Assembly: GCA_030606215.1 (NCBI GenBank)
Contig: JAUWGW010000011.1
Location: 1 to 44,477, forward strand
DNA: 44,477 nt
Direction: 5' to 3'
Origin: a bacterium
Lineage (GTDB): Bacteria > NPL-UPA2 > JAUVJM01
Shown here: one piece after another, positions 10,203 to 31,418 of the stretch
How the letters are laid out: every line of letters starts with the position of its first letter
How positions within the stretch are numbered: the first letter of the stretch is position 1
The notes under the pieces: generated by a model
The model's database searches: none
What the model was told of the DNA's origin: nothing
Seen by the model: only the letters and a program-made list of their open reading frames with translations
Program-made: the position numbers and the translations under genes

Positions 10203-11573
10203 TTATTCCTCAAATGCATTTTTAGATAATCTCTTAGAATGTTTTATAGGGTAGTTTCCATTAAAGCAGGCTGTGCAGAACTCGTCCCTGGATAACATCA
10301 TAGACTCAAGCATGCCTTCCAAACTTAAATACTCTAAGCTATCCAATCCAATGAAGTTTTTTATCCACTCGACCGAGTGATTTGAAGCAATTAATTCCCT
10401 TTTAGTGGGAAAGTCTATGCCATAGAAACACGGATACCTGAGCGGGGGGCAGCTAACACGCATATGGATTTCCTTAGCACCCGCTTCTCTGAGCGTCCTT
10501 ACCCGGATACGGCTGGTCGTTCCCCTAACAATTGAATCTTCTATAATAACTATACGTTTATTTCTAAGAACATCTTTTATCGGATTAAGCTTCACCCTGA
10601 CCCTGAAATCCCTGATAAGTTGTGAAGGTTGAATAAAAGTTCTTCCAATATAATGGTTTCTTATCATTCCAACCTCATAAGGGATTCCGGATTCTTCTGC
10701 AAAACCAACTGCCGCATAATTCCCCGAATCCGGGATAGGCATTACGAAATCGCAATCCGCAGGGCATTCCCGGGCAAGTTGTCTGCCCAGTCGTTTCCTG
10801 GTCAGATATACACTCTTGCCAAATATATTGCTGTCGGGTCTCGCAAAATAGATATATTCAAAGATACACAAGGAGTGTTTATCACCGGGGAAAGGTTTAA
10901 TGGATTCCAACCCATTCTTATCAATAAATACAATCTCGCCGGGCTCAATTTCTCGTATATAATCAGCCTGGATCAAATCTAAAGCGCAGCTCTCACTTGC
11001 TAAAACATAGCTATCTCCAAGCTGCCCCAGGCATAGAGGTCTGAATCCATAAGGGTCTCTTGCGCCAATTAGCAAATTATCCAGCATTAAGACCAATGAA
11101 TAGGAACCTTCAATCTTAGATAACGCCTCAACAACCCCGCGCTTACTATCTTTCTTCTCCGACTTAGCTAAGAGATGGACTATTATTTCAGAATCCATCG
11201 TAGTTTGAAAGATAGAGCCTTCCTTCTCCATCGCCCGGCGTAATTTTAGAGCGTTCGTAAGATTGCCATTGTGGGCGACGGCAATATGACCTCTTCGTAA
11301 AGTTACCAGAAACGGCTGGATATTTTTTTCATGGCTTAAACCGGTCGTTGAATAACGAACATGGCCGCAAGCCGCACTGCCGCGCAGGGACCTGATTACC
11401 TTCTCATCAAAAACATCGCCAACCAGACCCATACCCATATGGTGTTTGACCTTCTTCCCATTATAAGCGACTATCCCTGCGCTTTCTTCTCCACGATGTT
11501 GAAGGGCATACAAACCCAGATAGGCAAGTCTTGCCGCATCTTTATGTCCGTATATCCCAACTATTCCACACAT
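10203..11573 (-). CDS. purF: Amidophosphoribosyltransferase
   Basis: Catalyses the first step of purine synthesis, making phosphoribosylamine from PRPP and the amide of glutamine. Translation is taken from the ATG at 11571-11573 so that Met-Cys-Gly begins the protein. Cys2 is the class II glutaminase nucleophile (CGIVGIYGH, then ALQHRGEESAGI), giving 456 residues; an upstream in-frame extension has no counterpart in the family. The phosphoribosyltransferase domain has the PRPP loop IVIIEDSIVRGTTS. The C-terminal EFCTACFNGNYP and upstream cysteines suggest the Bacillus-type [4Fe-4S] enzyme. It is the last gene of the carA-to-purF series and faces the PIN module tail to tail, 47 bases apart. 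Confidence 0.95.
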   Translation of the reverse strand: MCGIVGIYGHKDAARLAYLGLYALQHRGEESAGIVAYNGKKVKHHMGMGLVGDVFDEKVIRSLRGSAACGHVRYSTTGLSHEKNIQPFLVTLRRGHIAVAHNGNLTNALKLRRAMEKEGSIFQTTMDSEIIVHLLAKSEKKDSKRGVVEALSKIEGSYSLVLMLDNLLIGARDPYGFRPLCLGQLGDSYVLASESCALDLIQADYIREIEPGEIVFIDKNGLESIKPFPGDKHSLCIFEYIYFARPDSNIFGKSVYLTRKRLGRQLARECPADCDFVMPIPDSGNYAAVGFAEESGIPYEVGMIRNHYIGRTFIQPSQLIRDFRVRVKLNPIKDVLRNKRIVIIEDSIVRGTTSRIRVRTLREAGAKEIHMRVSCPPLRYPCFYGIDFPTKRELIASNHSVEWIKNFIGLDSLEYLSLEGMLESMMLSRDEFCTACFNGNYPIKHSKRLSKNAFEE

Positions 11574-11598
11574 ATAACCCTCACTACATTCCAAGAAA

Positions 11599-11650
11599 GC
11601 CCAATAAATTGGGCAACTACAAATAACTGCAGTTGCTTGATTTATCAAGC
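11599..11650. repeat. Pair of short palindromes between pyrG and purF
   Basis: Two perfect short inverted repeats sit 20 bases apart: GCCCAATAAATTGGGC (11599-11614, seven-base arms) and GCTTGATTTATCAAGC (11635-11650, six-base arms). A third, larger palindrome follows at 11682-11745. None is followed by a U-run on the coding strand, so they look like dispersed repeats and not terminators. They separate the pyrG stop from the purF start by about 195 bases, the widest gap in this gene series. Confidence 0.65.
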
Positions 11651-11681
11651 TAAAGAAAGTTCACTGGACCACACCACTGCC

Positions 11682-11745
11682 TGTCATTCTGAGGAGCCCT
11701 GCGACGAAGAATCTCCATAGATTCTTCACTCCGTTCAGAATGACA
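11682..11745. repeat. 64-bp imperfect palindrome with TGTCATTCTGA ends (MITE-like)
   Basis: The element begins TGTCATTCTGAGGAG and ends CGTTCAGAATGACA, with an inner palindrome AGAATCTcctAGATTCT-like around 11708-11727. This TCATTCTGAG...CAGAATGA palindrome is a widely dispersed repeat in many bacterial genomes and metagenome bins, where it occurs in intergenic positions. It carries no gene. It is probably a non-autonomous mobile or RNA-level repeat. Confidence 0.75.
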
Positions 11746-11768
11746 TGGAGTTGACTGAACTTGCACTT

Positions 11769-13373
11769 TCACAGTGCTGCTCTGATAAAGTCTCTGAAAA
11801 GCGGATGCGGAGCTCCAAATCTGGACTTAAACTCGGGGTGGAATTGACATGCGACAAACCACGGATGTTCCGGCAGCTCAATAACCTCTACAAGGCGTCC
11901 GTCCGGCGAAAGTCCACTCAGAACCATCCCCGCCTTTTCAAACTGTTCCCTGTAACTCATGTTAAATTCATAGCGGTGCCGATGTCTTTCACGAATCTTC
12001 CTTACTTTATACGCCATATGTGCAAAAGTTCCACTTTTAAGCTCTGCCGGGTAAGAACCAAGCCGCATTGTTCCACCTTTCTTTTTCACTTTCTTTTGCT
12101 CCGGCATCAAATCAATTACCGGGTGAGCTGTTGTGGGGGCAAACTCAGAACTGTTGGCGCCGCTAAGCTTACATTTTTCTCTTGCGAATTCAACCACAGC
12201 GCACTGCATACCAACACATATCCCCAGGAATGGAATCTTTTTCTTCCTGGCAAAACCTGCTGCGATAATTTTCCCTTCGATTCCCCGGCTGCCAAACCCT
12301 CCGGGGATGAGGATCCCATCCACCTTCCTCAAAAGCTTACCAGGACCATTTTTTTCTACCTCTTCAGCATCCACCCAGGAAATTTCCACACGGGAATCAG
12401 AAACGATGCCCGCGTGGACAAGTGCTTCATTAATACTCTTGTATGAGTCAAAGAGCTGGGTGTATTTCCCGACAACCGCAATAGCAACTGACTTGCGAGC
12501 ATTCTTGAGTCTCTTCAGATTCTCCTTCCATTTCCCGAGATTTTGTCTTCTTCCCGGAAGATTCAACCGCTTCATGATCATCCTGGCGAGCCCCTGTTCT
12601 TGCAATTTGATGGGAACTTCATATATAGATTCAACATCAATTGCATCAATTACAGCTTCTTCAGGCACACTGCAGAAAAGGGCAATCTTACGCCTTGCAT
12701 CTTGTGACAGAGGCTTCTCAGTCCTGCAGAGAAGCATATCAGGTTCAATTCCGATCTCTCTCAATCGTGCCACGCTATGCTGGGTAGGCTTGGTTTTCAC
12801 CTCTCTGGCACTTCTTACATATGGCACGAGTGTCAGGTGAATGTTCAGACAGTTTTCTCTCCCGATGTCAAGAGGAAACTGCCTTATTGCTTCAAGAAAA
12901 GGCAGTCCTTCTATATCTCCTACGGTGCCGCCAAGTTCAACAATAACCACATCCAGGCTCCCTTCCCGGGCAATTCTTTTTATGAATCTCTTAATCTCAT
13001 CAGAAACATGCGGCACGACCTGAACAGTTTTACCAAGATAATCCCCTCTGCGCTCCCTCATAATTATGGAGTGATAAATCTGCCCGGCAGTGAAATTATT
13101 TTCTTTCCTTATCTTCAGAGATGTGAAACGTTCATAATGCCCCAGGTCCAGGTCCGTCTCAGCTCCATCATCAGTAACATAGACCTCACCGTGTTGATAT
13201 GGGTTCATTGTGCCGGGGTCAACATTAAGGTAAGGGTCCATTTTCTGAATGGTAATTTTCAGCCCGCGACTTTCCAGGAGACACCCAATTGAAGCAGATG
13301 CAATCCCTTTACCCAGTGAAGAAAGAACACCGCCAGTTATAAAAATATATTTAGGCATTTTCATCCCCTTCAT
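11769..13373 (-). CDS. pyrG: CTP synthase
   Basis: Converts UTP to CTP using ATP and glutamine. The N-terminal synthetase domain starts [17 protein letters not shown] (P-loop), with [20 protein letters not shown] shortly after. The C-terminal class I glutaminase has GICVGMQ with the nucleophile Cys, an [10 protein letters not shown] block and HPEF. At 534 residues it is full length. The first ATG overlaps the hisF stop as ATGA. An ATG five codons in (13358) has AAGGGG six bases ahead and gives the usual [10 protein letters not shown] start, so the true protein may be 529 residues. Confidence 0.96.
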
Positions 13374-14140
13374 ATCCTGACCGGAATACCTTTGCTTTTC
13401 AAATATTGTTTCGCTTCTTTAATCGAATACTCACCGTAATGAAAAATTGAGGCTGCAAGCGCAGCATCAGCCTTACCTTCAGTAAAAGCACGACAGAGAT
13501 GTTCTAAATTCCCAGCTCCTCCAGAGGCAATTACAGGGATATTCACTGCCTCCGATATCGTTCTGGTCAACTCTAAGTCATATCCCTCTTTGGTGCCATC
13601 CTTATCCATACTGGTTAGGAGAATTTCTCCTGCCCCCAACCCTTCAACTTTCCCCGCCCATTCGAGGACATCCATATCAGTAGATTTCTTGCCTCCGTAA
13701 ATATAAACCTGCCACCGCTTGGTTGATGGTTTACCGTCAACGGACTTTGCATCTATAGCGACTACAATACATTGAGTTCCAAATTCTTCAGATGATTCTC
13801 GAATCAAATCAGGATTCTCTACAGCCGCTGTGTTCAGAGATACTTTATCTGCTCCAGATTTAAGCAGGAGTCTTATATCCTCTATATCCCTGATTCCCCC
13901 GCCGACAGTCAGGGGAATAAAGACCTTTTCTGCACATTTCTCGACCACCCCTAAAATTGTTTTGCGCTTTTCAATGCTAGCAGTGATATCCAAGAACACT
14001 ATCTCATCAGCACCCTCTTCGGAGTACGCAAAAGCTGATTCCACAGGATCCCCGGCATCTCTCAAGTTCAGAAAATTAATCCCCTTTACGACGCGAGCAT
14101 CTTTAACATCCAAACAAGGTATAATCCTTTTAGCTAACAT
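13370..14140 (-). CDS. hisF: Imidazole glycerol phosphate synthase, cyclase subunit
   Basis: A 256-residue TIM barrel that joins PRFAR and ammonia to give imidazole glycerol phosphate and AICAR. It starts [20 protein letters not shown], with both catalytic aspartates visible in [11 protein letters not shown] and [14 protein letters not shown]. The phosphate site is PVIASGGAG. It overlaps hisH by 11 bases, as expected for partners that form one complex, and overlaps pyrG by four. No other his genes are nearby, so this pair is separated from the rest of the pathway. Confidence 0.96.
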
Positions 14141-14789
14141 AACGGCAAAAATTCTCCAGGAATTTCAAGCCAAGTTTTGCGCTTTTCTCAGGGTGAAATT
14201 GTACACCGATAACGTTATCTTTGTTCACTACTGAAACAAAATCTTTGCCATATTCAGTCGTAGCCACAATTGTCTCTTTATCTTCCGGTTCAACATAGTA
14301 GGTGTGAACAAAATAAAAATACGACTCATCCGGAATACCATCAAAAATTTTCATGCTTAATTCCTGACTCCCGGCAGGCAAGGTTTCATTTTCCGTTTTG
14401 AACTTTATTTTGTTCCATCCCATATGAGGTACTTTACCCCCGCACTTATGTATATCTGTGGTGGTGAATCTTTTCACCCTGCCCTTTACGATATCCAAGC
14501 CATGGTGGAGCCCGTGTTCTTCACTTTCACTAAATAATAACTGCAACCCCAAACAGATCCCAAGAAAGGGCTTACCCTCTTTAATAGCCTTAAAGATGGA
14601 AGGCAGAATGTCAAGTCTTTCAAGATTTTCCATGCCTCGATGGAATGCTCCTACCCCAGGAAGAACTAATCCTCTTGCCTGAGCTATCTTCCTTCGATTA
14701 TTAGTAATCTCCACTTCCGCGCCAACAGATTCCAGAGCTTTGCTTACACTCCTTAAATTTCCCAGGTCATAATCAATAACTGCTATCAA
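14130..14789 (-). CDS. hisH: Imidazole glycerol phosphate synthase, glutaminase subunit
   Basis: A class I glutamine amidotransferase supplying ammonia to HisF. The nucleophile Cys79 is in [11 protein letters not shown], and the His-Glu pair is in [18 protein letters not shown] and [10 protein letters not shown] are family signatures. At 219 residues it is longer than the usual 200 or so. The extra stretch lies at about 132-147 ([16 protein letters not shown]), and its DNA contains CTTGCCTGCCGGGAGTC, reminiscent of the GC-rich repeats elsewhere in the window. It overlaps hisF and follows guaA by 13 bases. Confidence 0.95.
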
Positions 14790-14802
14790 CCTGTCTCCTT
14801 TC

Positions 14803-16356
14803 TTATTCCCATTCTATTGTGCTTGGCGGCTTTGAAGAAATATCATATACTACTCGATTTATCCCTTTGACTTCATTTATAATACGATTAGAGATTTCCT
14901 CCAGCAGCTCATATGGAAGTCTTGCCCAATGAGCAGTCATTGCATCCTCGCTGGTTACTGCCCTTATAGCAGCAACACTTTCATAGGATCTTCGGTCTCC
15001 CATAACACCTACCGTTTTTATTGGTAAGAGTACACAGAACGACTGCCACAACTTCCGATATAATTTTGCGCGTTTTATCTCATCTATCAAAATCCAGTCT
15101 GCCTGGCGCAAGATATCCAACCTTTTGGAAGTTACTGCGCCAATAATTCGTACTGCCAACCCCGGCCCCGGAAAAGGCTGCCTGTAAATAATGTCATCAG
15201 GCAGTCCCAGCTCTCTGCCGACGAGTCTCACCTCGTCCTTAAATAGATACTTAAGCGGCTCAACTAACTCAAATCTCAAATGAGGCGGTAGTCCTCCGAC
15301 ATTGTGGTGTGTCTTGATGGTTGCCGAAGGTCCACCGAAAACAGAGCCCGACTCAATTACATCAGGGTATAGTGTGCCCTGAGCTAAGAACTTAATCTTT
15401 CCAAGTTTTTTTGCCTGTTTCTCAAAAACATCTATAAAGATTCTCCCGATTATTTTGCGCTTTTTTTCAGGGTCTTTAACGCCTTTCAAAGCCTTAAGGA
15501 AAACACCCTTTGCGTCAACCATCCTCAAGTTAATACGACAATGACTTCTGAACCTCTTTTGAACAAACTTTGCTTCATCTTTGCGCAATAGACCATTATC
15601 AATAAATATGGCTATTAGACTCTTGCCTATCGCCTTATGCAGTAGTATTGTCAAAACAGAAGAATCTACGCCGCCACTTAATGCGCACAAGACCTTTTCC
15701 TTACCTATCGTTTCCTTTAGCTCATTAATGGAATTCTTGACAAAAGAATGCATACTCCATGAAGATTTGCAATTTGCTATATTGATGAGGAAATTTTTCA
15801 ATATCACTTTGCCTTTTGGTGTATGCACCACCTCGGGATGAAACTGAACTCCGTAGAACTTTCTTAGTCCATTCTCCATCGCTGCAATATCAGCATTCTC
15901 TGTTGACCCGATTATTCTGAAACCCCGGGGCAGTTTTGCAATCCTGTCTCCGTGGCTCATCCAGACTATCTCTTTTTTCGAAAGTCCCTTGAATAGATTG
16001 TCTCTGCACTTAGTCTTAAAGGTTACCTTGCCATATTCCCCTGCCTTAGCTTTCGCGACCCTGCCTTGTAAGCTCCTCGCCATGAGCTGGGCACCATAGC
16101 AAATTCCAAGGATCGGAATGCCCATACTAAATATATCCTTATCGCACATAGGGCTTCTTTTTAAAATAACGCTCGCTGGTCCGCCGGACAGGATAAGGGC
16201 TTTGGGAGACCGCTTCACAAGTTCGCAAGCACTAATATTATGAGCGACTACCTCGGAATAAACACCGCACTCTCTCACTCTACGCGCAATGAGATGGGTA
16301 TATTGTGAACCAAAATCTAAAATGGCTATCCAATCCTTTTCACATCCGCGATTCAT
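14803..16356 (-). CDS. guaA: GMP synthase (glutamine-hydrolysing)
   Basis: Aminates XMP to GMP. The N-terminal GATase begins [20 protein letters not shown] with nucleophile Cys in [12 protein letters not shown] and VQFHPEV. The PP-loop ATPase has [15 protein letters not shown], and the C-terminal dimerisation domain ends KPPSTIEWE. The start chosen is the ATG at 16354-16356 (MNRGCEKDW), which has GAGG eight bases upstream and gives a normal 517 residues. The frame stays open further upstream into carB, but that extension is not conserved. With this start it overlaps the carB stop by 17 bases. Confidence 0.95.
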
Positions 16357-17980
16357 CTTCTGCCTCATAGGTAGAATAATAGTAAGGAGTAAAAGCCTCA
16401 AATTCTGCGCCACAGGTATCTACCGACTTGAAAGTAGGTACAATTCCCTTCTCTTTGCGAAATTTATAAATTCGGCTTTCATCCATTCCTAAGAGTCTGC
16501 CCAATTGTTTGTCTGAAAACCCATATTCCTTAGCCCTGCGCAATAAATCAACTGAATCCTGAATCCTGAGTGCTGAGAGTTGACTCTCTAACTCCACAAT
16601 CTGTTTAATATTATGTAAGAACCATTTGTCAATCTTAGTTAATTCATAAATCTCATTTAGACTCATTCCTTCCTTTAAGGCATATTTTATGTAAAACACT
16701 CTCTCTGCATTAGGTATCCTTAAATTCTCTTCCAGACTTTCGTTCGAAACCTCACAACTCAGATCTTCTAATCCGGAAACCCCCACTTCTAAAGAGCGCA
16801 GCCCTTTCTGCAATGCTTCTTTAAATGTTCTACCAATAGCCATCGCCTCACCTACAGATTTCATAGAGGTGGTTAGAGAGGAATCCGCTTCAGGGAATTT
16901 CTCAAATGTAAAGCGCGGGATCTTCACTACACAATAGTCAATAGTCGGCTCAAAACAAGCTGGAGTCTTCTTAGTAATGTCATTTGGGATTTCATCCAGG
17001 GTATAGCCGATAGCCAATTTCGCTGCAATCTTTGCAATAGGGAAACCCGTAGCCTTAGAAGCTAAAGCCGAACTTCTTGAGACCCTGGGATTCATCTCAA
17101 TAATAACCATTCTACCGTCATCCGGATTCACGGCAAATTGAATATTTGAGCCTCCAGTCTCAACCCCTATTTCTCTAATACAGGAAATCGCCGCATCGCG
17201 CATCTTCTGATACTCTTTATCGGTCAATGTTTGCGCCGGGGCAACAGTAATTGAATCTCCTGTGTGAATTCCCATAGGGTCAAAATTTTCTATTGAGCAT
17301 ATAATGACAACATTGTCTTTTAAATCTCTCATTACCTCTAATTCAAATTCCTTCCAGCCAACAATGGATTCCTCAATCAATATCTCATTGATCATGCTTG
17401 CCTCAAGACCTCTCTCTGCAACCTCCTTAAATTCCTCCCTATTATTTGCTACACCCCCTCCTATGCCACCTAAGGTAAAACTTGGCCGAATAATCACAGG
17501 GAAGCCTATCCTCTCAACTACCTCAAAGGCTTCTTTCAAATTATAAGCTTTGTCACTCTCCGGTAAATCCAGTCCTATTCTCTTCATTGCTTTCTTAAAT
17601 AATCCTCTATCCTCCGCTTTCTTGATCGACTGTATACTTGCGCCTATCACCTCTACATCAATACCTCTTTCTGCTACCGCTACGGTAACATTTAAGGCAG
17701 TCTGGCCACCCAATGTTGGTAAAATAGCATCTGGCTTCTCTTCCTTAACTATTTCCTCCACTACCTCCGGGGTAATCGGTTCAATATAAGTTCTATCAGC
17801 TATTGCCGGGTCAGTCATGATAGTAGCAGGATTACTGTTCAGCAAAATCACCTTAAACCCCTCAGACTTCAAAACCTTACAAGCTTGTGTCCCTGAATAA
17901 TCAAATTCACAAGCCTGGCCTATTACAATCGGCCCTGAACCAATTATCAGAATTTTTTTAATATCAGTTCTCTTCGGCAT
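16340..17980 (-). CDS. carB: Carbamoyl phosphate synthase large subunit, N-terminal half (split CarB)
   Basis: The 546 residues cover exactly the first half of a normal CarB of about 1,070. The carboxyphosphate ATP-grasp domain starts [20 protein letters not shown] and includes [31 protein letters not shown]. The oligomerisation domain follows, with [19 protein letters not shown] and [16 protein letters not shown]. It ends [16 protein letters not shown], precisely where the second ATP-grasp half would begin, and the stop lies inside guaA. The carbamate-phosphorylating half is not in this window. Split carB genes are known in some archaea and bacteria such as Aquifex, so this is probably a working half whose partner is elsewhere. 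Thirty bases separate it from carA. Confidence 0.94.
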
Positions 17981-18010
17981 CTTTCCCTAAAGGCAAAGCA
18001 ATCTTTGCCA

Positions 18011-19249
18011 CTACATCTTAATCCTCATTAAATCAACAAATTCCCCGAATAAATATTGCGCGTCGTGAGGACCGGGAGAAGCTTCAGGATGAAATTGCAC
18101 TGAAAATACGGGCAGTGTCCTGTGCCTCATTCCCTCACACGTGCCATCGTTCAAATTTATATGTGTTATCTCTATATCTTCATTGCCCACCATATAATAC
18201 TTTTTCTCTGTTTTCTCCCCCATTCTTACACAGAATCCATGGTTCTGAACCGTTATAGCTACTTTGCCTGTCTTTAAATCTTTAACCGGGTGATTTGCTC
18301 CATGATGCCCGAATTTAAGTTTGTAAGTCTTACCACCGAGGGCTAATCCCAGCATCTGATGCCCTAAACAGATGCCCATAATGGGCAGTTTATAATTGGC
18401 AGTTGATGATTGATAGATGAGTTGCTTCACAGTCTCTACAACATAGGGGACACCGGCAGGGTCACCGGGACCATTGGAAAGTAGCAGTCCATCGGGTTTC
18501 ATCTTCAGAATTTGCTCAGCAGTCGTTTTCGCAGGAACAACTACTACATGGCAACCCAAGTTAACCAGGCTTCTTAAGATATTATATTTTACCCCGCAGT
18601 CAACAACTATCACTTCAAATCTATCTGTCTCTCGGAGACTAACCCCTGCGCAAGCAGGGACTGCGGTTACGTCTGTCTTCTGGTTTCTGGTATCCGGCAC
18701 CTGGTTTCCCGGAACACCCACCAAAGGTGGGTCGGGTTTCTGGTTACTCCAACCATATGTTTGGCCGCATGCAACTTCCTTGACCAAATCCCTGCCAACG
18801 AGACCCTGCGAAGACTTAGCCTTTTTAACCAGACTTTTATCGTCTAAATCTTCAGTAGAGAGCACTGCTCTCATTGCTCCCTGTAACCTAATATGTCTGG
18901 TAAGCGCGCGTGTATCTATGCCCTCTATCCCCATTATATTATTTTCCTGTAGATAATCGTCTAAACTCTTCTGTGAACGCCAGTTGCTAACAATGCGACT
19001 GCACTCTTTAACGACAAAACCTTCTACGAAAGGCTTTCTTGATTCAACATCCTCCGAATTTACACCATAGTTACCAATAAGAGGATAGGTCATGGTGACA
19101 ATCTGACCTTTATAGGAAGGATCCGTGAGGATTTCTTGATAACCGGCCATACTGGTATTGAAAACTACCTCACCAAATCTCTCGCCAGTTGCGCCGAAAG
19201 AAGAACCTTCAAAAATCCTGCCGTCTTCTAAAGCTATCTTTGCCTTCAT
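18011..19249 (-). CDS. carA: Carbamoyl phosphate synthase small (glutaminase) subunit with an in-frame repeat insertion
   Basis: Supplies ammonia from glutamine for carbamoyl phosphate (pyrimidine and arginine synthesis). The N-terminal CPSase domain starts [14 protein letters not shown] with [17 protein letters not shown]. The C-terminal class I GATase has [11 protein letters not shown] with the nucleophile Cys and [11 protein letters not shown]. At 412 residues it is about 40 longer than usual. The excess lies at about 169-210 between the two domains, after YGW and before [14 protein letters not shown], and it is encoded by repeat-like DNA. The reading frame stays intact through it. Active-site residues are all present, so the enzyme is probably functional. 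It is the first intact gene of the series carA-carB-guaA-hisH-hisF-pyrG-purF. Confidence 0.95.
18620..18745. repeat. Palindrome-bearing repeat inserted in frame in carA
   Basis: This stretch encodes the extra 42 residues of CarA. It contains two perfect hairpins: ACCCACC-AAA-GGTGGGT at 18716-18732 and CCCTGC-GCAA-GCAGGG at 18644-18659. It also contains several copies of a CTGGTTTCTGG/ACCAGAAACC motif. The flanking codons rejoin the normal CarA alignment, so this is an insertion into the interdomain linker. The hairpin style matches the intergenic palindromes elsewhere in the window. Confidence 0.7.
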
Positions 19250-19354
19250 TCAGTTTAGCTTAGCATACCTTTAACATACTTAGCAATTGCTAAAAAACCA
19301 CTCCTCACCAGACATCTCCTGAATAAAATGTGGAAGCTGTTACGAGGAGGGCCT

Positions 19355-19417
19355 CGGAAAATTACCTCTTGCAGAAACTACTGACTTATACAATAAAACG
19401 ATTGCGGTAATTTTCCG
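19355..19417. repeat. 12-bp perfect inverted repeat, 63 bp end to end
   Basis: CGGAAAATTACC (19355-19366) and GGTAATTTTCCG (19406-19417) are perfect inverted copies separated by 39 A+T-rich bases. The structure lies in the decayed end of the glutamate-synthase-like pseudogene. It could be a small MITE or a chance remnant of a hairpin. The remaining 19250-19354 before carA holds a perfect 14-base palindrome TTAGCAATTGCTAA (near 19286) but no convincing promoter. Confidence 0.55.
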
Positions 19418-19419
19418 TG

Positions 19420-19841
19420 GAGTGAAGCCACCAGATGCATTTAGAATCCTTGCTGAACGTCCCAACGAGGAATAGCAGACAAAGATTTCCTTTTCGGTTT
19501 TTCCAAATTCAGACACAGTCTTTGGCAATTCATTATTTTTAATCCAATTGCCAATATTTTCACCAACCAGGCCTGGTATCATCAAAGCACGCCCCATACA
19601 AACCGCTTTTACGAAAGGAGCTCCCATACTCAGCTACGCCCAAACGCGTATCTTCTACATTCACCTGCACTAATATTTCGCCGTAACCTTCATAGAACCT
19701 CTTATAAATCTCTATGCGCCGATCCATATCCGGGGAACTTTTGACCCTGCCTTCACTATCAAGCTCAAGGCCGGGGTCAATACCGCAAACATTCTCCCTG
19801 CAGAACAGGAAACTTCCTGGGAAAAGTGCACCATCTATCAT
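19420..19841 (-). pseudogene. Remnant of an FMN-binding glutamate synthase family gene
   Basis: Two fragments in different frames match the FMN-binding glutamate synthase family. The upstream part reads GIDPGLELDSEGRVKSSPDM, then RRIEIYKRFYEGYGEILVQV and NVEDTRLGVAEY. Directly after the EY codons, in another frame, comes GAPFVKAVCMGRALMIPGLV, GENIGNWIKNNELPKTVSEF and KEIFVCYSSL. In intact members these blocks lie more than 150 residues apart, so a large internal deletion with a frameshift has joined them. The N-terminus and the C-terminal tail are also missing. The remnant lies between gdh1 and carA, next to other glutamate-metabolism genes, and its expression would have been under the attenuator at 19891-19967. 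Confidence 0.8.
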
Positions 19842-19875
19842 TCACACAACTGCTGCATAATCCTTTCTTCTTCAT
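19777..19875 (-). CDS. Truncated small cysteine-rich protein
   Basis: An ATG at 19873-19875 with AAAGGAG eight bases upstream opens a 32-residue frame, MKKKGLCSSCVNDRWCTFPR followed by KFPVLQGECLRY. It has two CxxC-like pairs and looks like the start of a small zinc- or iron-binding protein. The frame ends abruptly where the DNA becomes glutamate-synthase-like sequence in another frame, so the original gene was probably cut by the same deletion that ruined its neighbour. It is the first reading frame after the third ANTAR attenuator. It may be translated, but function is unlikely. Confidence 0.5.
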   Translation of the reverse strand: MKKKGLCSSCVNDRWCTFPRKFPVLQGECLRY

Positions 19876-19890
19876 GGCTCTGCTCCTTTC

Positions 19891-19967
19891 AAAAGAAAAA
19901 CGCCCTCCTTAGCAAACTTTGCTGCTAAAAAGGACGTCGTTATCCAGTCTTTCCTAACTTTGGAAAG
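19891..19967 (-). promoter_or_regulatory. ANTAR-type attenuator between gdh1 and the carA series
   Basis: On the minus strand, 25 bases after the gdh1 stop, hairpin P1 is CTTTCC-AAAGTTA-GGAAAG (19949-19967). Three bases on, P2 is GGAT-AACGAC-GTCC (19932-19945). Both loops have A1 and G4, the reported ANTAR RNA signature. A terminator with a 15-bp stem (three wobble pairs, arms 19923-19937 and 19900-19914) follows, with a T-rich run to 19891. Its 5' arm begins inside the P2 loop, so P2 and terminator cannot form together. No promoter separates it from gdh1, so it would gate read-through from gdh1 into the damaged genes and on to carA. Confidence 0.72.
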
Positions 19968-19991
19968 AGTATGAAACAAGGAAATTCATCA

Positions 19992-21239
19992 CTAAATCCA
20001 ACCACGAAGTTCCATTGCTTCGACCACACGCTCAACAGCAACCACATAAGCCGCTTGCCGCATATTTATGCTGTATTCCTTTGAAGTATTTAGTACAGAG
20101 TCATAAGCAGACGTCATTTTTTTATTCAGACGTTCATGAACTTCTTTTTCGTCCCAGTAATCCATATTGAAATTCTGGACCATCTCAAAATATGAAACTG
20201 TCACGCCACCAGCATTACACAGGAAATCAGGTAATACGTGAACACCATTTTTACAAAGAATATCATCCGCCTCTGGTGTAGTTGGCCCGTTAGCTAACTC
20301 CGCGAGGATCTTGGCCTTAATGTTTGGGGCATTCTCCTCGGTAATAACATTTTCCAAAGCGGCAGGAACAAGTATATCTACTTCGATTTCCAGAATTTCC
20401 TCATTTGAAATAGATTCAGCATCTGGGAAATTGATTACCGAACCTGTTTTGGCTTTATATTCATGAACCACCTCTGGTTCAATTCCTTCCTTACTGAATA
20501 TGCCTCCTTTGCTGTCACTAACCGCTATTATCTTAGAACCGAAGAGAGTTTTAGCAAGATATGCCGCATTATACCCAGCATTCCCATAGCCCTGTATAGC
20601 AACGGTAGCTTCTTTAAGATCTACACTGCATTCTTTAGCTGCTTCACGAACAGTGTACATACCACCCCTGGCAGTTGCATCGCCGCGCCCTGCAGAGCCG
20701 CCTATACTGAGCGGTTTCCCAGTAATAACACCGAACTGATTCTTCCCGACAATTTTTGAGTACTCGTCCATCATCCAACCCATTATTTGAGGGTTTGTGT
20801 AAACATCAGGTGCAGGAATGTCTCTATCCGGTCCAATTAATTGCCATACCCGATTGATATATGCACGACTCAAGCGTTCCAGCTCACCTTTGGACATCTG
20901 TTTGGGATTACAGATAATCCCGCCCTTCGCTCCTCCAAGAGGTAAGTCAAGAAGAGCGCATTTCCAGGTCATCCAGGCTGCAAGAGCCCGTACAGTATCA
21001 ATCGTTTCATCAGGATGAAATCGAATTCCCCCTTTTGTTGGACCTCTCGCATCATTGTATTGAACTCTGAACCCCTGGAACACCTTAACAGAACCATCAT
21101 CCATACGAATTGGTAACGATATATGAAATTCACGCATCGGAATACGAAGGATTTCACGCACACCAGAATCTAACTTTAGAATCTTCGCACACTCACTCAA
21201 TTGTCTCCCTGCAATCTCAAATGGATTAAGTTTTGCCAT
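19992..21239 (-). CDS. gdhA: Glutamate dehydrogenase 1
   Basis: A 415-residue hexameric-type enzyme interconverting 2-oxoglutarate plus ammonia and glutamate. The substrate domain has [11 protein letters not shown] and the catalytic-lysine block [10 protein letters not shown], then [20 protein letters not shown] and [20 protein letters not shown]. The Rossmann domain has [14 protein letters not shown]. The C-terminal region includes [10 protein letters not shown] and [17 protein letters not shown]. It is a paralogue of the enzyme at 29097-30350. It is transcribed alone from its own promoter through an ANTAR leader, unlike the second copy, which lies in an operon without such a leader. Confidence 0.95.
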
Positions 21240-21290: not shown

Positions 21291-21373
21291 ACAAAATAAA
21301 AAAAGGCATTCTTTCCCCCTTCTTTGGGGTTTCAAGAACACCTTTGTTCCATTTTGATACTAACGTTGTATCA
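21291..21373 (-). promoter_or_regulatory. ANTAR-type attenuator in the gdh1 leader
   Basis: On the minus strand: P1 TGATAC-AACGTTA-GTATCA (21355-21373), five bases, then P2 GAAC-AAAGGT-GTTC (21336-21349). Loop positions 1 and 4 are A and G in both. The terminator's 5' arm AAAGGTGTTCTT starts with the P2 loop itself and pairs over 12 bp with AAGAATGCCTTT (21302-21313), enclosing a CCCC/GGGG mini-hairpin and followed by a long T-run (21291-21304). P2 and terminator are therefore mutually exclusive. This is the cleanest copy in the window and lies between a strong promoter and the gdh1 start. Confidence 0.82.
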
Positions 21374-21379
21374 GCTTGT

Positions 21380-21408
21380 ATTATAATCTATAATTATTGG
21401 TCGGTCAA
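21380..21408 (-). promoter_or_regulatory. gdh1 promoter
   Basis: Minus-strand TTGACC (21403-21408), a 17-base spacer and a perfect TATAAT (21380-21385). Transcription would begin near 21373, at the first base of attenuator hairpin P1. Upstream lie repeated TTTTTCTGAA tracts (21411-21430) that could serve as an UP element. A run of ten G/C bases (21441-21449) separates this from the gltB-3 stop. Confidence 0.8.
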
Positions 21409-21465: not shown

Positions 21466-22284
21466 TTAGTATGCGTACAACCTTCCATAAGGTCGGTGGG
21501 TATGGGGAATTAATTTTACAAAGTCAGTATCCATAACCTCTTTAAAATCCAATGAAAAACAAGCACAATACTCCTTTAGATATTTTCCTAACATTTTATC
21601 ATCCTCATCATTCAGCCTGAATTTCTTCACCTCTTTACCTAACTGGTAATCTTCTATATCACCCCGAATATACATTGTTCCGCCATGCATACCTGTGCCA
21701 CAATAGTTGCCAACCAGTCTATAATCCATAGTCGGTAGTCCATAGCCCTTTATCTTCTTCTGTGGACTATGAACCGTGGACCGTTGACTTCTTTCCCGGT
21801 TTAGACCCAGTACTACTATAAGTCCGCCTGCCATATATTCTCCCAAAAAATCTCTTACAGTACCCCCTATTATGATTACCGGATATAAATCCTTATAGGA
21901 TTTCATATGAATTCCAGTTCTATAACCAGCACTCCCTCTTATATAAATCTTACCTCCTCGCATAGAGTGTCCGGCGATATCGCCAACATCACCATGGACA
22001 ACAATTTTACCAGCATTCATCGTATTCCCAATCCCATCCTGCGCATTAGAATTAACAACAATAGTCGGACCGTCCATAAAAACAGCTAAATCATTGCCTG
22101 GCACTCCATTAATGGTAATTTTTACATCACCGGCTAATCCATCCCCAATATAGCGTTGACCATTGACATTATCTAAGACGAGTTCCTCAGTGCCACTATT
22201 GACAGCCTGATGGACTTTCTCGTTCAGCTCCTTGTAGTATAAACCCCTTGCATTTATTCTAAATACTTTGGACTCTTTCTTCAT
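21466..22284 (-). CDS. Glutamate synthase, GXGXG-domain subunit (GltB C-terminal domain) with repeat insertion
   Basis: A 272-residue subunit equivalent to the C-terminal right-handed beta-helix domain of GltB. It shows the repeated G-x-x-G pattern: DGLAGDVKITINGVPGNDLA, GIGNTMNAGKIVVHGDVGDI, HSMRGGKIYIRGSAGYRTGI and FLGEYMAGGLIVVLGLN. The motif resumes at VGNYCGTGMHGGTMYIRGDI. Between these last two blocks, about residues 163-190 (HSPQKKIKGYGLPTMDYRL within it) form an insertion encoded by tandem GTCCAC/CTATGGACTA repeat DNA. In bacteria this domain is normally fused to the others; separate subunits are the archaeal arrangement, also found in some bacteria. It overlaps the flavoprotein gene by four bases and ends the operon. 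Confidence 0.88.
   Translation of the reverse strand: MKKESKVFRINARGLYYKELNEKVHQAVNSGTEELVLDNVNGQRYIGDGLAGDVKITINGVPGNDLAVFMDGPTIVVNSNAQDGIGNTMNAGKIVVHGDVGDIAGHSMRGGKIYIRGSAGYRTGIHMKSYKDLYPVIIIGGTVRDFLGEYMAGGLIVVLGLNRERSQRSTVHSPQKKIKGYGLPTMDYRLVGNYCGTGMHGGTMYIRGDIEDYQLGKEVKKFRLNDEDDKMLGKYLKEYCACFSLDFKEVMDTDFVKLIPHTHRPYGRLYAY
21715..21798. repeat. GTCCA-type inverted tandem repeat inserted in gltB GXGXG subunit
   Basis: Read on the minus strand, one arm has TCAACGGTCCACGGTTCATA and AGTCCACAG, then a purine-rich linker, then the inverted arm GCTATGGACTACCGACTATG continuing GATTATAGACTGG. CTRTGGACTA units occur in both arms in opposite orientation. A sister copy lies at 25056-25128. Both are read in the same frame, giving HSPQ...MDYRL in each protein. 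Confidence 0.72.
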
Positions 22285-23582
22285 ATTACCGCGACCTCTC
22301 CTGCTACAAGATGTTTTCTATACTCCTTAGGCAAACTGATCAAACCGAAGTCTTCTTTTAAAAGATGTTCCTTAAAACTCGCGGCATCAACTTTATCCTT
22401 AATAAGACCTGTGTAAATCCCTGCTCGTTCTATATCGCTTACAAAGATAGCACCTACTACCTTATTGTTTTTTAAAACAATTTTCTTATACACAGAATTC
22501 TTTTGATCAAAACACTCCAAAACTTGATACCCTTTTCCCTCAGGATAAGTTTCCCCCACTGAAATAGTCGGAATTCCACACAGCTCAACAGAATTCATGG
22601 CGAAGCTTCCTGGATATTCTTTTCTCGCTCCAGCCATATTGAAACCTGCAATTTTCCCCTGCCTCACCGCTGCCGGCCAGATAGCAATGGGACGCTTCAT
22701 TTCCAGGAGTAAATCTTCTGCCTCACAGCAATCTCCTGCAGCGTAAATATCTTTGATATTTGTCTGCAAAAAAGCATCAACTAAAATTCCTTTATTTGTC
22801 TTAATTGGGGTATTTTTTACAAGCTCTATATTTGGTCTAACACCGACAGCAACAATAACTAAACTCGCTGAAATCTTTTTCCCATCTTTTAGAATAACTC
22901 CTTCTGCTCTCTTATTTTTGCCCTTTATCTCCACAACAGTATTATTAGTAATCAATTCACAACCCTTCCTGCCCAAAGCATTTTCAATTATACTTGATGC
23001 CTTTTTATCAAAAGTTGCAGATAGAACTCTGTCAGCTAATTCGACAATGACTACTTTAATCTTTAGTTCCATCAGAGCTTCAGTTGCCTTCAAGCCAATT
23101 AACCCTCCACCGACAACAACCGCTTCCTTAACTTTGTTAGTCCTTATATAGTTTTTTATGTTCCGGGCATCAGCCAGCCTGGTAAAAGTAAATACACCTC
23201 CTGAATTCAAACCTTTTATCTCCGGTATAACAGGCATACCACCAGCAGCTATAAGCAACTTATCAAAAGGGAGCTTTCGGTCACCTGCGAGAACAACTTC
23301 TTTTTTCTTCAAATTTAGCTTTGTTGCCTTCCTATTTAAAATCAGCTCTACTCTATTATCTTTATAAAAATCTTCTCCACGATACGGCATTTTATCAAGG
23401 GTTACCTTCTCGCCTAATAAATAAGATATCAAAGGTCGGGAATAATTAATATGTGGTTTACCCCGCACAAAGATGCGGGGTTCGTCGGAAATAACGGTTA
23501 TCTCACCCTTCTTATCACATTCACGAATAGCTTCTATCGCAGCAATTCCACCTGCAGAATTACCGATAAGGACATACCTCAT
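22281..23582 (-). CDS. FAD/NAD(P)-dependent oxidoreductase of the glutamate synthase operon
   Basis: A 433-residue flavoprotein of the NADH oxidase / nitrite-reductase-like group. The FAD site is MRYVLIGNSAGGIAAIEA, the NAD site is AVVVGGGLIGLKATEALMEL, and the second FAD block is IKDIYAAGDCCEA. It probably passes electrons from NAD(P)H through the four-cluster ferredoxin to the FMN subunit, replacing the usual GltD. An eight- to eleven-residue insertion lies at about 36-46 (RIFVRGKPHIN), between ISDEP and YSRPLISY, where relatives read straight through. The DNA there is a perfect palindrome. The gene overlaps both neighbours by four bases. Confidence 0.88.
   Translation of the reverse strand: MRYVLIGNSAGGIAAIEAIRECDKKGEITVISDEPRIFVRGKPHINYSRPLISYLLGEKVTLDKMPYRGEDFYKDNRVELILNRKATKLNLKKKEVVLAGDRKLPFDKLLIAAGGMPVIPEIKGLNSGGVFTFTRLADARNIKNYIRTNKVKEAVVVGGGLIGLKATEALMELKIKVVIVELADRVLSATFDKKASSIIENALGRKGCELITNNTVVEIKGKNKRAEGVILKDGKKISASLVIVAVGVRPNIELVKNTPIKTNKGILVDAFLQTNIKDIYAAGDCCEAEDLLLEMKRPIAIWPAAVRQGKIAGFNMAGARKEYPGSFAMNSVELCGIPTISVGETYPEGKGYQVLECFDQKNSVYKKIVLKNNKVVGAIFVSDIERAGIYTGLIKDKVDAASFKEHLLKEDFGLISLPKEYRKHLVAGEVAVI
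23460..23481. repeat. 22-bp palindrome inserted in frame in the flavoprotein gene
   Basis: ACCCCGCA-CAAAGA-TGCGGGGT: eight-base perfect arms and a six-base loop. It encodes the extra residues after DEP near the N-terminus of the oxidoreductase. Its style matches other GC-rich palindromes in the window. The insertion keeps the frame and falls between strands of the FAD domain. Confidence 0.7.
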
Positions 23583-24025
23583 TTCTCCTCCTCACAAACA
23601 ATTGCTTCGTTAGGACAATTCTTCACACAAACAGGTACTTCTTCACCCACACATAAGTCACATTTAGAAGCTATCTTTTTACCTTCAATATTTCTTGAGA
23701 TAACTCCAAATGGACAGACCATAATGCACATCCAGCAACCTATACATTTATCCTCATCGCACAAGACAGCCCCTGTCTTTTTATCCCGATACATTGCCCC
23801 GGTTATACACGCCTCTAAACACGGAGCATCTTCACAATGACGGCATTGAAGGGCAAACGACACATACCCTTTCTCTTCTACAATAATCCTTGGGATAGGT
23901 TTTGGATACTCCCCCTTATATGCCTTTATTATATTCTTCGTCTTGGAATGTTGCACAAGGCAATGAACTTCACAGAGCCTGCACCCCATACAATACTCTT
24001 CCCTTATATAGATCCTCTTCACCAT
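23579..24025 (-). CDS. Four-cluster ferredoxin-like electron carrier (HycB family)
   Basis: A 148-residue iron-sulphur protein with four cysteine motifs in the HycB/DmsB order: CMGCRLCEVHC near the N-terminus, CRHCEDAPCLEACITGAM, CIGCWMCIMVCPFGVI and a closing CDLCVGEEVPVC...CPNEAI. This pattern holds four [4Fe-4S] clusters and works as an electron wire. Sitting between the FMN subunit gene (seven-base overlap) and the flavoprotein gene (four-base overlap), it probably connects NAD(P)H oxidation to the glutamate synthase core. Confidence 0.9.
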   Translation of the reverse strand: MVKRIYIREEYCMGCRLCEVHCLVQHSKTKNIIKAYKGEYPKPIPRIIVEEKGYVSFALQCRHCEDAPCLEACITGAMYRDKKTGAVLCDEDKCIGCWMCIMVCPFGVISRNIEGKKIASKCDLCVGEEVPVCVKNCPNEAIVCEEEK

Positions 24026-25575
24026 GCCTCCCCCGCTGGTTTTATTCCGAGCAATTTCAAGTCGGTGTCGGACAAACCTACCCCCCTCAACTGTTCACGG
24101 TTTCCTCTTAAACTCTCAATTGCATTTATGCCCATGCCACCGAGCATCTCTTTTATCTCCAGGCTCCAGGCACGCAGTAAATTAACTAACCTTCGAGTGC
24201 CTATATCCGGGTTGAGCCTCTTGGTTAGATACGGGTCCTGAGTAGCAATACCCCAGTTACACTTTCCCGTGTAACAGCGCTGACAGAGGTTACACCCCAT
24301 TGCTACCAGGGCTGCTGTGCCGATATAGACAGCATCTGCACCTAAGGCAATAGCCTTGATAACGTCAGAGCTTGACCTTATACCTCCGGCAGCAATCAAA
24401 GAAGCTTGATTTCTAATGCCTTCTTCCCTCAAACGATTATCCACAGCGGCAATTGCTAACTCAATCGGTATCCCCACATTATCCCTTATTACTGTGGGGG
24501 CAGCTCCTGTCCCTCCTCGCAGACCATCTATAGCCACAAAATCTGCCCCTGCTCTAACTATCCCAGAAGCAATGGGAGCTACATTATGCACAGCAGATAT
24601 TTTTACCCCTACCGGTTTACTGTACCGAGTAGCCTCTTTCAATGCAAAGATTAGCTGCTTCAAATCCTCAATTGAATAAATATCGTGATGCGGCGCAGGA
24701 GACAAAGCATCTGTCCCCACAGGAATCATTCTGGTCTGACTAATCTCCTCTGATACTTTCTCACCTGGCAAATGGCCGCCAATTCCTGGTTTTGCACCCT
24801 GGCCAATCTTTATCTCTATAGCAGCTCCTGCTTCTAAATATTCCCTATGCACTCCAAACCTTCCCGAAGCTACCTGGACAATTGTATGAGCACCATATTC
24901 ATATAAATCTTTATGTAGTCCTCCTTCTCCCGTATTGTAGAATGTCCCGATTTCTTTAGCAGCCCTTGCAAGAGATATGCAGGCATTCAAACTGATAGAA
25001 CCATAACTCATTGCGCTGAATAGAATCGGCGTTTCCAGTTTGAGTTGAGGACTTAATTTAGTCAATAGTCGATAGTCCATAGCCGATGGTATCTTATTTT
25101 TTTCTGTGGACTGTGGACTGTGAGCTGTTAACTCAATTCTATCCGGCTTCCTTCCAATATAAGTACGCAGTTCCATTGGTTCTCGTAACGGGTCAATTGA
25201 AGGATTTGTAACCTGAGAAGCATTAAGCACAATATGGTCCCAGTATACAGGATAGGGTTTATCACAGCCCATCCCGGTTAAAAGCACACCGCTTGTTTCA
25301 GCCTGTTTGGTGATATTTCTAATGACCTGAGCACTCCAGTTAGCATTTAGCTTAAACTCGGAAGGATTGCGTTTTATTATAATTGCGCCGGTTGGGCAAA
25401 TGGTCTCACAGAAATGACACCCAACGCATTTTGTGCTGTCAGAAGTTACCGTATCAGTCTCAGGATCATAAGAATGTGCATCATTAGAACACATTCTCAC
25501 GCATACCTGACAGGCGATGCATTTTCCCTCATCCCTTTCTATAATAAATTCCGTTGGTGTTGGGCGTTTAGCCAT
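24019..25575 (-). CDS. gltB: Glutamate synthase FMN/Fe-S subunit (GltB central domain) with repeat insertion
   Basis: Taken from the ATG at 25573-25575 ([10 protein letters not shown], preceded by AAAGGG), 518 residues. An N-terminal two-cluster ferredoxin domain has [11 protein letters not shown] and [14 protein letters not shown]. The FMN barrel has [50 protein letters not shown] and [20 protein letters not shown]. The [3Fe-4S] ligands are in [15 protein letters not shown]. It condenses 2-oxoglutarate with glutamine-derived ammonia. About residues 150-174 ([20 protein letters not shown] within it) are an insertion of the same repeat family as in the GXGXG subunit. The start overlaps the GATase subunit stop by eight bases; a longer frame upstream is not needed. 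Confidence 0.92.
25056..25128. repeat. GTCCA-type inverted tandem repeat inserted in gltB FMN subunit
   Basis: Minus strand: CACAGTCCACAGTCCACAG, a purine-rich linker, then GCTATGGACTATCGACTATT followed by GACTA. It is the same family as 21715-21798. The right arms agree almost base for base over GCTATGGACTAYCGACTAT, and the left arms share AGTCCACAGAA. It is read in the same frame as the other copy, encoding HSPQ and later MDYRL. Confidence 0.72.
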
Positions 25576-28059: not shown

Positions 28060-28121
28060 CTTCTCCTCCTCCTCCTTTTCTAACTCCATTAGATGTTTAC
28101 TATCTTATATTTCTCCTCATT

Positions 28122-28218
28122 AAAAAAGGCATCCAATCCCAATTTGCCATCGCGGCATCAGACTGGACGCCTATGTCCGATTACTACCTGCCTGTTTGCG
28201 ACAGGCGTGCTTTGTAGT
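28122..28218 (-). promoter_or_regulatory. Second ANTAR-type attenuator in the glnA1 leader, P1 loop interrupted by a palindrome
   Basis: P2 is GGAC-ATAGGC-GTCC (28165-28178), with A1 and G4 in the loop. The terminator's 5' arm AGGCGTCCAGTC starts in that loop and pairs over 12 bp (two wobbles) with GATTGGATGCCT, followed by a T-run (28122-28127); together they span 28122-28172. Four bases upstream of P2 a stem ACTAC/GTAGT (28214-28218 with 28183-28187) encloses a loop beginning AAAGC, as P1 should. The loop is 26 bases long because it contains a GCCTGT-CGCAA-ACAGGC hairpin (28190-28206). This looks like a normal P1 with a palindromic repeat inserted in its loop. The interruption is an inference. 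Confidence 0.62.
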
Positions 28219-30678: not shown

Positions 30679-30690
30679 ATTTTTTCTCCC

Positions 30691-31404: not shown

Positions 31405-31418
31405 ATCAAAGAAAACCC

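What the first reader, a model, noticed from the sequence alone, without database searches (positions are those of the whole stretch)
10203..19967. Glutamine-dependent enzymes grouped by chemistry, not by pathway, downstream of an ANTAR attenuator
carA, carB, guaA, hisH, hisF, pyrG and purF belong to four pathways (pyrimidine/arginine, GMP, histidine, purine). What they share is use of the glutamine amide. They are co-directional and mostly overlapping. hisHF is pulled out of the his pathway; it is the one his step that uses glutamine. Just upstream are glutamate synthase, two glutamine synthetases, two glutamate dehydrogenases, PII and NadE, and further up trpEG. The first element of the series is an ANTAR attenuator after gdh1. 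I infer a demand module in which glutamine status gates the main glutamine consumers together.
Basis: partly seen in the sequence, partly recalled or inferred. Interest (0 to 1): 0.85.

Follow-up and report, generated by a model that had tools for sequence, protein, structure and literature searches.

The report
Glutamine-using enzymes share ANTAR-type switch
In this small uncultured bacterium, and in relatives from several phyla, genes from unrelated pathways that all take nitrogen from glutamine sit side by side next to the glutamine-making genes, and RNA switches of the ANTAR type precede many of them, which suggests a gene set built around a shared donor molecule rather than a shared product.

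Summary
carA, carB, guaA, hisH, hisF, pyrG and purF are co-directional, mostly overlapping or a few bases apart, and lie just downstream of glutamine/glutamate assimilation genes. The rest of the his operon (hisD-B-A-I) is on another contig. The leader before carA has the ANTAR-target anatomy (two hairpins with A1/G4 loops, the second overlapping a 17-bp terminator). Two more such leaders precede gdh1 and glnA2; strict scans found 3 real sites and none in 60 shuffles. The genome's only ANTAR protein (GAF-ANTAR) lies in the same cluster. The grouping is not a one-off: a guaA-hisH-hisF core occurs in 6 of 6 sampled genomes of the phylum with hisH, in shuffled order, and similar clusters occur in other phyla. 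A covariance model finds such leaders before carA, hisH, guaA, glnA, glt, gdh, amt and the ANTAR gene. Corrections: carB is only an N-terminal half; a decayed glutamate-synthase pseudogene separates attenuator and carA; carA's membership is unique within the sampled phylum; NadE is probably ammonia-using; since supply and demand genes carry the same switch, they probably rise together. Transcription, ligand and direction are inferred. A new variant of known ANTAR nitrogen regulons.

The parts
28374..29078 (-). GAF-ANTAR regulator, 234 aa; the only ANTAR protein found in the genome
   Evidence: Pfam GAF_2 2.8e-25 and ANTAR 4.5e-20; one ANTAR hit in genome; EutV RNA contacts Arg142/Lys149/Tyr164 align with R181/K188/Y203 (residues named in PMC8934654)
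28228..28319 (-). ANTAR-type leader of glnA2: P1 AAGCAC[AAGGTTG]GTGCTT, P2 GAAC[AAAGGC]GTTC, overlapping terminator
   Evidence: CM hit
28128..28178 (-). second, imperfect attenuator before glnA2: P2 GGAC[ATAGGC]GTCC and terminator; would-be P1 interrupted by palindrome GCCTGTCGCAAACAGGC
   Evidence: by eye; fold
26725..28089 (-). glnA2, glutamine synthetase type I
21466..26659 (-). split, archaeal-type glutamate synthase (glutaminase-like, FMN synthase, Fe-S, FAD oxidoreductase, GXGXG genes)
21380..21408 (-). promoter-like site (TTGACC-17-TATAAT, 11/12) for gdh1
21299..21374 (-). ANTAR-type leader of gdh1: P1 TGATAC[AACGTTA]GTATCA, P2 GAAC[AAAGGT]GTTC, terminator
19992..21239 (-). gdh1, glutamate dehydrogenase
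19948..19968 (-). P1 of the carA attenuator TCTTTCC[AAAGTTA]GGAAAGA
19932..19945 (-). P2 (antiterminator hairpin) GGAT[AACGAC]GTCC
19899..19938 (-). intrinsic terminator, 17 pairs, overlapping P2
19463..19832 (-). decayed pseudogene of an FMN-type glutamate synthase (gltS2 family), two frames with a large internal deletion
   Evidence: tblastn with L115 protein, E 3e-31 (75% id) and 1e-24 (65% id)
18011..19249 (-). carA, glutamine-hydrolysing small subunit of carbamoyl phosphate synthetase
16340..17980 (-). carB, N-terminal half only (546 aa)
14803..16413 (-). guaA, GMP synthase (true start near 16356-16368)
14130..14789 (-). hisH, glutaminase subunit of IGP synthase
13370..14140 (-). hisF, cyclase subunit of IGP synthase
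11769..13373 (-). pyrG, CTP synthase
10203..11648 (-). purF, amidophosphoribosyltransferase
29097..32750 (-). gdh2, PII, nadE (synthetase domain only), glnA1: assimilation genes upstream of the regulator

Best explanation
A nitrogen regulon assembled around glutamine itself. A GAF-ANTAR protein senses nitrogen status (by inference the glutamine/2-oxoglutarate balance through its GAF domain, perhaps with PII), dimerises and binds the two small hairpins P1 and P2 in nascent leaders. P2 shares sequence with the intrinsic terminator, so binding prevents termination and lets RNA polymerase into glnA2, gdh1 and, through the attenuator after gdh1, carA-carB(N)-guaA-hisH-hisF-pyrG-purF. Enzymes that make glutamine and enzymes from several pathways that spend its amide are thus raised together. 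Shown here: the gene cluster, the leader anatomy with covariation, the regulator next door, and the recurrence of the association in other genomes. Inferred: that the leaders act, that this protein acts on them, the GAF ligand, the direction (I think antitermination under low glutamine/high 2-oxoglutarate, about 55%), and one long transcript from gdh1 to purF.
For: Three strict ANTAR-type sites in the window, 0 in 60 shuffles. The nascent carA leader folds as P1+P2, the full one as P1+terminator (z -4.2, none of 200 shuffles as stable). Covariation in 11 leaders (score 0.38 versus 0.23 shuffled, 13 double-change cells versus 5, 93% paired; sliding destroys it). Leaders directly before glutamine consumers elsewhere: carA in L002, L010, L020, L033, hisH-guaA-pyrG-hisF-purF in G008, hisH-guaA-pyrG-purF-ANTAR in G046 (P2 only), a guaA C-terminal subunit (L169), an ANTAR gene followed by pyrG (L175). 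In 145 genomes of the L002 (Omnitrophota) group, 24 sites at E<=0.01 in 18 genomes; nearly all those inspected lie by amt, glnA, glt, gdh, PII, ANTAR or amidotransferase genes. Clustering: 6 of 6 genomes of the phylum with hisH have it beside guaA, against 2 of 15 other-phylum genomes fetched the same way; 0 of 14 planctomycete controls. GAF best PDB matches are the EI-Ntr (PtsP) and NifA-like GAF domains; EI-Ntr senses the Gln/2-oxoglutarate ratio (PMC5024086).
Against: No expression or binding data. A 650-nt stretch with a dead glutamate-synthase gene lies between attenuator and carA, so the attenuator may be left over from regulating that gene, and untranslated RNA invites Rho termination. 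carA in the cluster is not found in the other sampled genomes of the phylum. Some genomes cluster the genes without any ANTAR gene (G005, the two planctomycetes), and some with an ANTAR gene gave no leader (G001, G007, G067, G068). Other amidotransferases of the genome (two glmS, pabA-like, asnB-like, a second carA) are elsewhere. P1 mostly has a 7-nt loop, not the classical six.
Confidence: 0.68

Rival explanations
1. Nucleotide-economy cluster: the genes are together because purine, pyrimidine and histidine synthesis are coupled through PRPP and AICAR, not because they use glutamine.
For: carA, pyrG (pyrimidines), purF, guaA (purines) and hisHF (releases AICAR into the purine pathway) can all be read as nucleotide genes; carA-pyrG adjacency alone is common among Omnitrophota (23 of 80 loci have pyrG near carA).
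Against: Only the glutamine-using step of each pathway is taken (no purD/B/H, pyrB/C/D, guaB, hisA); hisD-B-A-I stay on another contig. In the sister genome G001 the fourth gene is glmS (hexosamine). The group lies beside glutamine/glutamate assimilation genes and ANTAR genes in the window, G001, G007, G046 and L039.
Confidence: 0.15
2. Fossil attenuator: the ANTAR leader after gdh1 served the now dead glutamate-synthase gene; carA-purF is expressed from some other, nitrogen-independent start.
For: The pseudogene lies exactly between attenuator and carA; in G069 an intact member of that family directly follows an ANTAR leader.
Against: P1, P2 and the 17-pair terminator are intact although the gene behind them has decayed, which suggests that something further downstream still needs them; no promoter-like site of 9/12 or better on that strand in 19000-21300; in L002 the order is gltS2-ANTAR leader-carA and in L010, L020, L033 the leader lies 52-93 nt before carA.
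Confidence: 0.15
3. Plain terminator and neutral or selfish clustering: the hairpins are an ordinary gdh1 terminator and the gene grouping drifted together or travels as a block by horizontal transfer.
For: Two planctomycetes carry carA-guaA-hisH-hisF-pyrG-carB without an ANTAR gene while their class mates keep ordinary his contexts, which suggests transfer or a separate assembly; HisH of cluster genomes from other phyla is scattered in the tree.
Against: A plain terminator needs no upstream A1/G4 hairpin pair; covariation supports both hairpins. Gene order differs between families while membership stays, which drift or a single transferred block does not predict.
Confidence: 0.07

Closest known systems
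ANTAR-regulated nitrogen regulons predicted by Ramesh et al. 2012 (PMC3369931), e.g. Desulfotomaculum acetoxidans with 13 leaders in six units
   Same: Dual-hairpin leader with A1/G4 loops overlapping a terminator; several leaders per genome, some in tandem; targets in nitrogen metabolism including glutamate, glutamine and arginine synthases, PII and ammonium transporters
   Different: Here the targets also include the enzymes that spend glutamine (carA, hisH-guaA-pyrG-hisF-purF, a guaA subunit), grouped by co-substrate; P1 loop is mostly 7 nt; the regulator is GAF-ANTAR, a type that paper calls uncharacterised
EutV/EutW, NasR and AmiR attenuation systems
   Same: Mechanism by competition between P2 and terminator; RNA-contacting residues of EutV are conserved in this ANTAR domain
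   Different: Those act on one catabolic locus and sense ethanolamine, nitrate or amides; here the sensor is a GAF domain and targets are biosynthetic
EI-Ntr (PtsP) and NifA GAF domains
   Same: Closest solved-structure relatives of the GAF part; both are nitrogen-status sensors (glutamine/2-oxoglutarate; PMC5024086)
   Different: Their outputs are a phosphotransferase and a sigma-54 activator, not RNA binding; ligand not tested here
E. coli PurR regulon (from general knowledge)
   Same: One regulator over purine, pyrimidine and some glutamine-related genes (carAB, guaAB, purF, glnB)
   Different: DNA-binding repressor answering purines, genes scattered, pathway-wide rather than only glutamine-using steps

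Membership tests
ANTAR-target RNA (dual hairpin attenuator) | Two small stem-loops before the gene | tested here: met
ANTAR-target RNA (dual hairpin attenuator) | A at loop position 1 and G at position 4 in both loops | tested here: met
   AAAGTTA and AACGAC (carA), AACGTTA and AAAGGT (gdh1), AAGGTTG and AAAGGC (glnA2); invariant or nearly so in A3
ANTAR-target RNA (dual hairpin attenuator) | Loop of six nucleotides in both hairpins | tested here: not met
   P2 has six; P1 has seven in all three window leaders and in most relatives. Hence filed as a variant, not a standard member
ANTAR-target RNA (dual hairpin attenuator) | P2 overlaps an intrinsic terminator so the two exclude each other | tested here: met
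   terminator 19899-19938 shares 19932-19938 with P2
ANTAR-target RNA (dual hairpin attenuator) | ANTAR protein in the same genome | tested here: met
   one, in the same cluster; across genomes leaders at E<=0.05 in 8 of 14 with and 0 of 6 without an ANTAR gene
ANTAR-target RNA (dual hairpin attenuator) | ANTAR-dependent antitermination | not testable with these tools
   needs in vitro transcription or reporter assays
GAF-ANTAR RNA-binding antiterminators | N-terminal GAF and C-terminal ANTAR domain with the RNA-contacting residues | tested here: met
GAF-ANTAR RNA-binding antiterminators | GAF ligand that signals nitrogen status | not testable with these tools
   only homology to EI-Ntr and NifA-like GAF domains
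Glutamine-dependent carbamoyl phosphate synthetase | CarA with glutaminase triad plus CarB with two synthetase halves | tested here: not met
   CarA complete (GICLGH); CarB here is the N-half only; no separate C-half gene in the genome, but a complete CarAB on C1
Canonical his operon | hisH and hisF next to hisA/hisB | tested here: not met
   hisD-B-A-I on C22 without hisH or hisF

The most novel reading that the evidence does not exclude
A regulon and linkage group defined by a shared nitrogen donor: enzymes of pyrimidine, purine, GMP, histidine and, in a sister genome, amino-sugar synthesis are kept together, in shuffled order and across phyla, because all draw on the glutamine amide, and are switched together with glutamine supply by GAF-ANTAR antitermination.
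Probability: 0.5. Interest if true: 0.8.

Novelty: new variant of a known kind. Interest (0 to 1): 0.66.

Why it matters
Bacterial genes are normally grouped by pathway and regulated by end product. A conserved group chosen by co-substrate would mean that some bacteria regulate the allocation of a scarce donor (the glutamine amide) as one budget. It extends ANTAR attenuation from nitrogen supply to nitrogen demand, gives GAF-ANTAR proteins a concrete regulon, and is directly testable in vitro with one protein and a few leader RNAs.

Tried and rejected
Rfam at gathering thresholds finds nothing in the window, so the motif had to be found by eye, by a purpose-made scanner and by own covariance models. 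A first MAFFT alignment with the two oddest leaders (carA of the window, L002) was misaligned and dropped. The idea that the whole carA-to-purF order is conserved in the phylum was rejected: only guaA-hisH-hisF is constant, carA is not. The idea that the planctomycete clusters reflect a class-wide arrangement was rejected: 14 of 14 sampled class mates lack it. The idea that the 626- and 612-aa genes beside carA in L026 and L002 are amidotransferases was rejected: they are mnmG; in G001 the comparable gene is glmS. A contingency count used 7 and 16 genomes by mistake; the right numbers are 6 of 6 versus 2 of 15 (one-sided hypergeometric 105/203490, about 5e-4). Literature searches for a described cluster of glutamine-using genes found none in the open-access library, which is weak evidence since most subscription papers are not held; the Geobacter GnfR work (known to me from memory only) was not available there.
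Full report
Setting. The window is one whole contig (C30) of a 1.52-Mb, 34-contig, 93% complete genome. The same-phylum relatives held are few (8 genomes); the nearest named carA relatives are mostly Candidatus Omnitrophota and other uncultured lineages, so the organism is an uncultured bacterium of a small phylum whose name I could not read.

What is in the sequence. On the minus strand, in order of transcription: trpE-G-D-C-F-B-A, a YacP-like gene, leuS, an M16 peptidase, folD, glnA1, nadE, PII, gdh2, a GAF-ANTAR protein, glnA2, a five-gene glutamate synthase of the split type, gdh1, then carA, carB, guaA, hisH, hisF, pyrG and purF. carA to purF spans 10203-19249; most neighbours overlap or are within about 30 nt, the largest gap being 120 nt before purF. 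Four class I glutaminase genes keep the catalytic cysteine motif. Of 13 glutaminase-domain genes found in the genome by two Pfam models, five lie in these 9 kb (simple scan probability about 8e-6). The remaining histidine genes hisD-hisB-hisA-hisI form an operon on C22 without hisH and hisF; a second, solitary hisF is on C13.

carB here is a 546-aa N-terminal half; the genome also has a full-length CarB beside a different CarA (33% identical) on C1. NadE consists of the synthetase domain only, a type reported to use ammonia (PMC3376133), so it is not a clear glutamine consumer. Between the attenuator and carA lies a decayed gene: tblastn with an intact FMN-type glutamate-synthase protein from G069 (L115) matches in two frames with a large deletion, E 3e-31 and 1e-24.

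The attenuators. After the gdh1 stop codon (19992) come P1 TCTTTCC[AAAGTTA]GGAAAGA, P2 GGAT[AACGAC]GTCC and a 17-pair terminator that shares the 3' side of P2. The stretch up to P2 alone folds as exactly these two hairpins, the longer RNA as P1 plus terminator, which is what an antitermination switch requires. gdh1 and glnA2 have such leaders too. A scanner requiring P1, P2 and terminator finds these three and one spurious intragenic site on this strand; with stricter limits 3 versus 0 in 60 shuffles. In 11 leaders from several genomes the pairing covaries. There is no promoter-like site of 9/12 or better on this strand between the gdh1 leader and carA, while gdh1 has an 11/12 site, so read-through from gdh1 is the simplest source of carA transcripts. 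This is inference, not proof.

Conservation of the grouping. In the window's phylum all sampled genomes with hisH have it beside guaA: G001 (ANTAR-guaA-hisH-hisF-glmS, downstream of the split glutamate synthase), G002 (guaA-hisH-hisF), G005 (hisH-guaA-pyrG-hisF-purF), G007 (pyrG-ANTAR-PII-gdh-gltS2-hisH-guaA-hisF), G008 (hisH-guaA-pyrG-hisF-purF). Outside the phylum G046 has hisH-guaA-pyrG-purF-ANTAR-gltS2-ANTAR-carA-carB(N), G035 nadE-hisH-hisF-guaA, two planctomycetes carA-guaA-hisH-hisF-pyrG-carB, and L039 ANTAR-gdh-carA-carB(N)-purF-pyrG. Thirteen other-phylum genomes fetched in the same way and 14 planctomycetes have none of these neighbours, mostly with hisA or hisF beside hisH. Membership stays while order changes, which argues for selection on the grouping. 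On the HisH tree the cluster label needs three changes against a shuffled mean of 9.8.

Conservation of the leaders. Covariance models R1 and R2 find such leaders before carA (G066, G069, G070), hisH (G008), gdh1 directly downstream of hisF and a guaA subunit (G006, weak), the ANTAR gene itself (G035, G061), and glnA, PII, gdh and glutamate synthase. In 145 genomes of the L002 group 18 have 24 sites at E<=0.01, next to amt (L177, L179), gltB (L181), glnA/PII (L119, L182, L184), a glutamine amidotransferase with glnA (L170, L172, L183), a guaA subunit (L169), carA (L102), a carB (L186), ANTAR-gltS2 (L171, L173, L174, L178) and ANTAR-pyrG (L175). L180 is unexplained. Leaders at E<=0.05 occur in 8 of 14 genomes with an ANTAR gene and 0 of 6 without.

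How it most likely works. The ANTAR domain carries the residues by which EutV holds its loops. The GAF domain is closest among solved structures to those of EI-Ntr and NifA-like proteins, whose known members sense the glutamine/2-oxoglutarate balance. I therefore propose that the protein binds nascent leaders when nitrogen status demands and prevents termination. Because supply genes (glnA, glt, gdh, amt, PII) carry the same leaders as consumers, the simplest reading is joint induction; since amt and glnA are classically induced by nitrogen limitation (general knowledge), I lean to activation at low glutamine/high 2-oxoglutarate, where more enzyme would offset a low substrate level.

Relation to the known. 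Ramesh et al. predicted ANTAR regulons for nitrogen metabolism, including glutamate, glutamine and arginine synthases and tandem leaders. The control principle is therefore known. New as far as I can see are the inclusion of glutamine-spending steps from several pathways, their physical grouping, its recurrence across phyla, and the mostly 7-nt P1 loop. I file it as a variant because the six-nucleotide P1 loop was tested and not met.

Weak points. No functional data; the pseudogene leaves room for a fossil attenuator; several cluster-bearing genomes lack ANTAR genes or detectable leaders; carA in the cluster is not seen elsewhere in the phylum sample; most genomes are incomplete assemblies.

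Noticed in passing
window 16340-17980; also L004, L007, L009, L017, L022, L023, L026, L028, L030, L032, L034, L039: CarB is a stand-alone N-terminal half of about 550 aa in many uncultured genomes. Some have a separate C-half gene elsewhere (G276, G278, G230, G277, G155, G209), others, like this genome, only a full-length CarB of a second CarAB; the half beside CarA may work as a homodimer.
   Followed up: partly
window 19463-19832: Decayed pseudogene of an FMN-type glutamate synthase between attenuator and carA, preceded by a 32-aa cysteine-rich ORF (19777-19875) that may be partly fused to it.
   Followed up: yes
L086 7390-7610 (G008): Three tandem ANTAR-like attenuators after purF; the middle one is nearly identical to the window's carA terminator although the genomes are of different families, and related GGAT[AAxGAx]GTCC versions occur in L131 (4322) and L133 (9786).
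   Followed up: partly
window 28128-28225: A second attenuator before glnA2 whose P1 region is interrupted by the palindrome GCCTGTCGCAAACAGGC; no other copy among the fetched loci.
   Followed up: partly
L082 1-736 and L126 13638-15170: DUF1846 proteins lie next to the amidotransferase/ANTAR cluster in two genomes; a candidate member of the glutamine regulon of unknown function.
   Followed up: no
L119, L123, L182, L184 (upstream of the leaders): A repeated GGTTACCAAAA box followed by a T-run and ACTT upstream of glnA and PII leaders, possibly an operator or promoter element.
   Followed up: no
window 9511-10155, plus strand: PIN-domain protein and a neighbouring 59-aa ORF, converging with purF; looks like a toxin-antitoxin-type pair.
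   Followed up: partly
L128 1008-5883 (G008): An ANTAR leader precedes NuoE/NuoF-like and ferredoxin-domain genes followed by gltS2, which suggests a glutamate synthase fed by an NADH-oxidising module.
   Followed up: no
L010 11145-17314 and L033 4101-11782: Two full-length carB genes close to a single carA in Omnitrophota.
   Followed up: no
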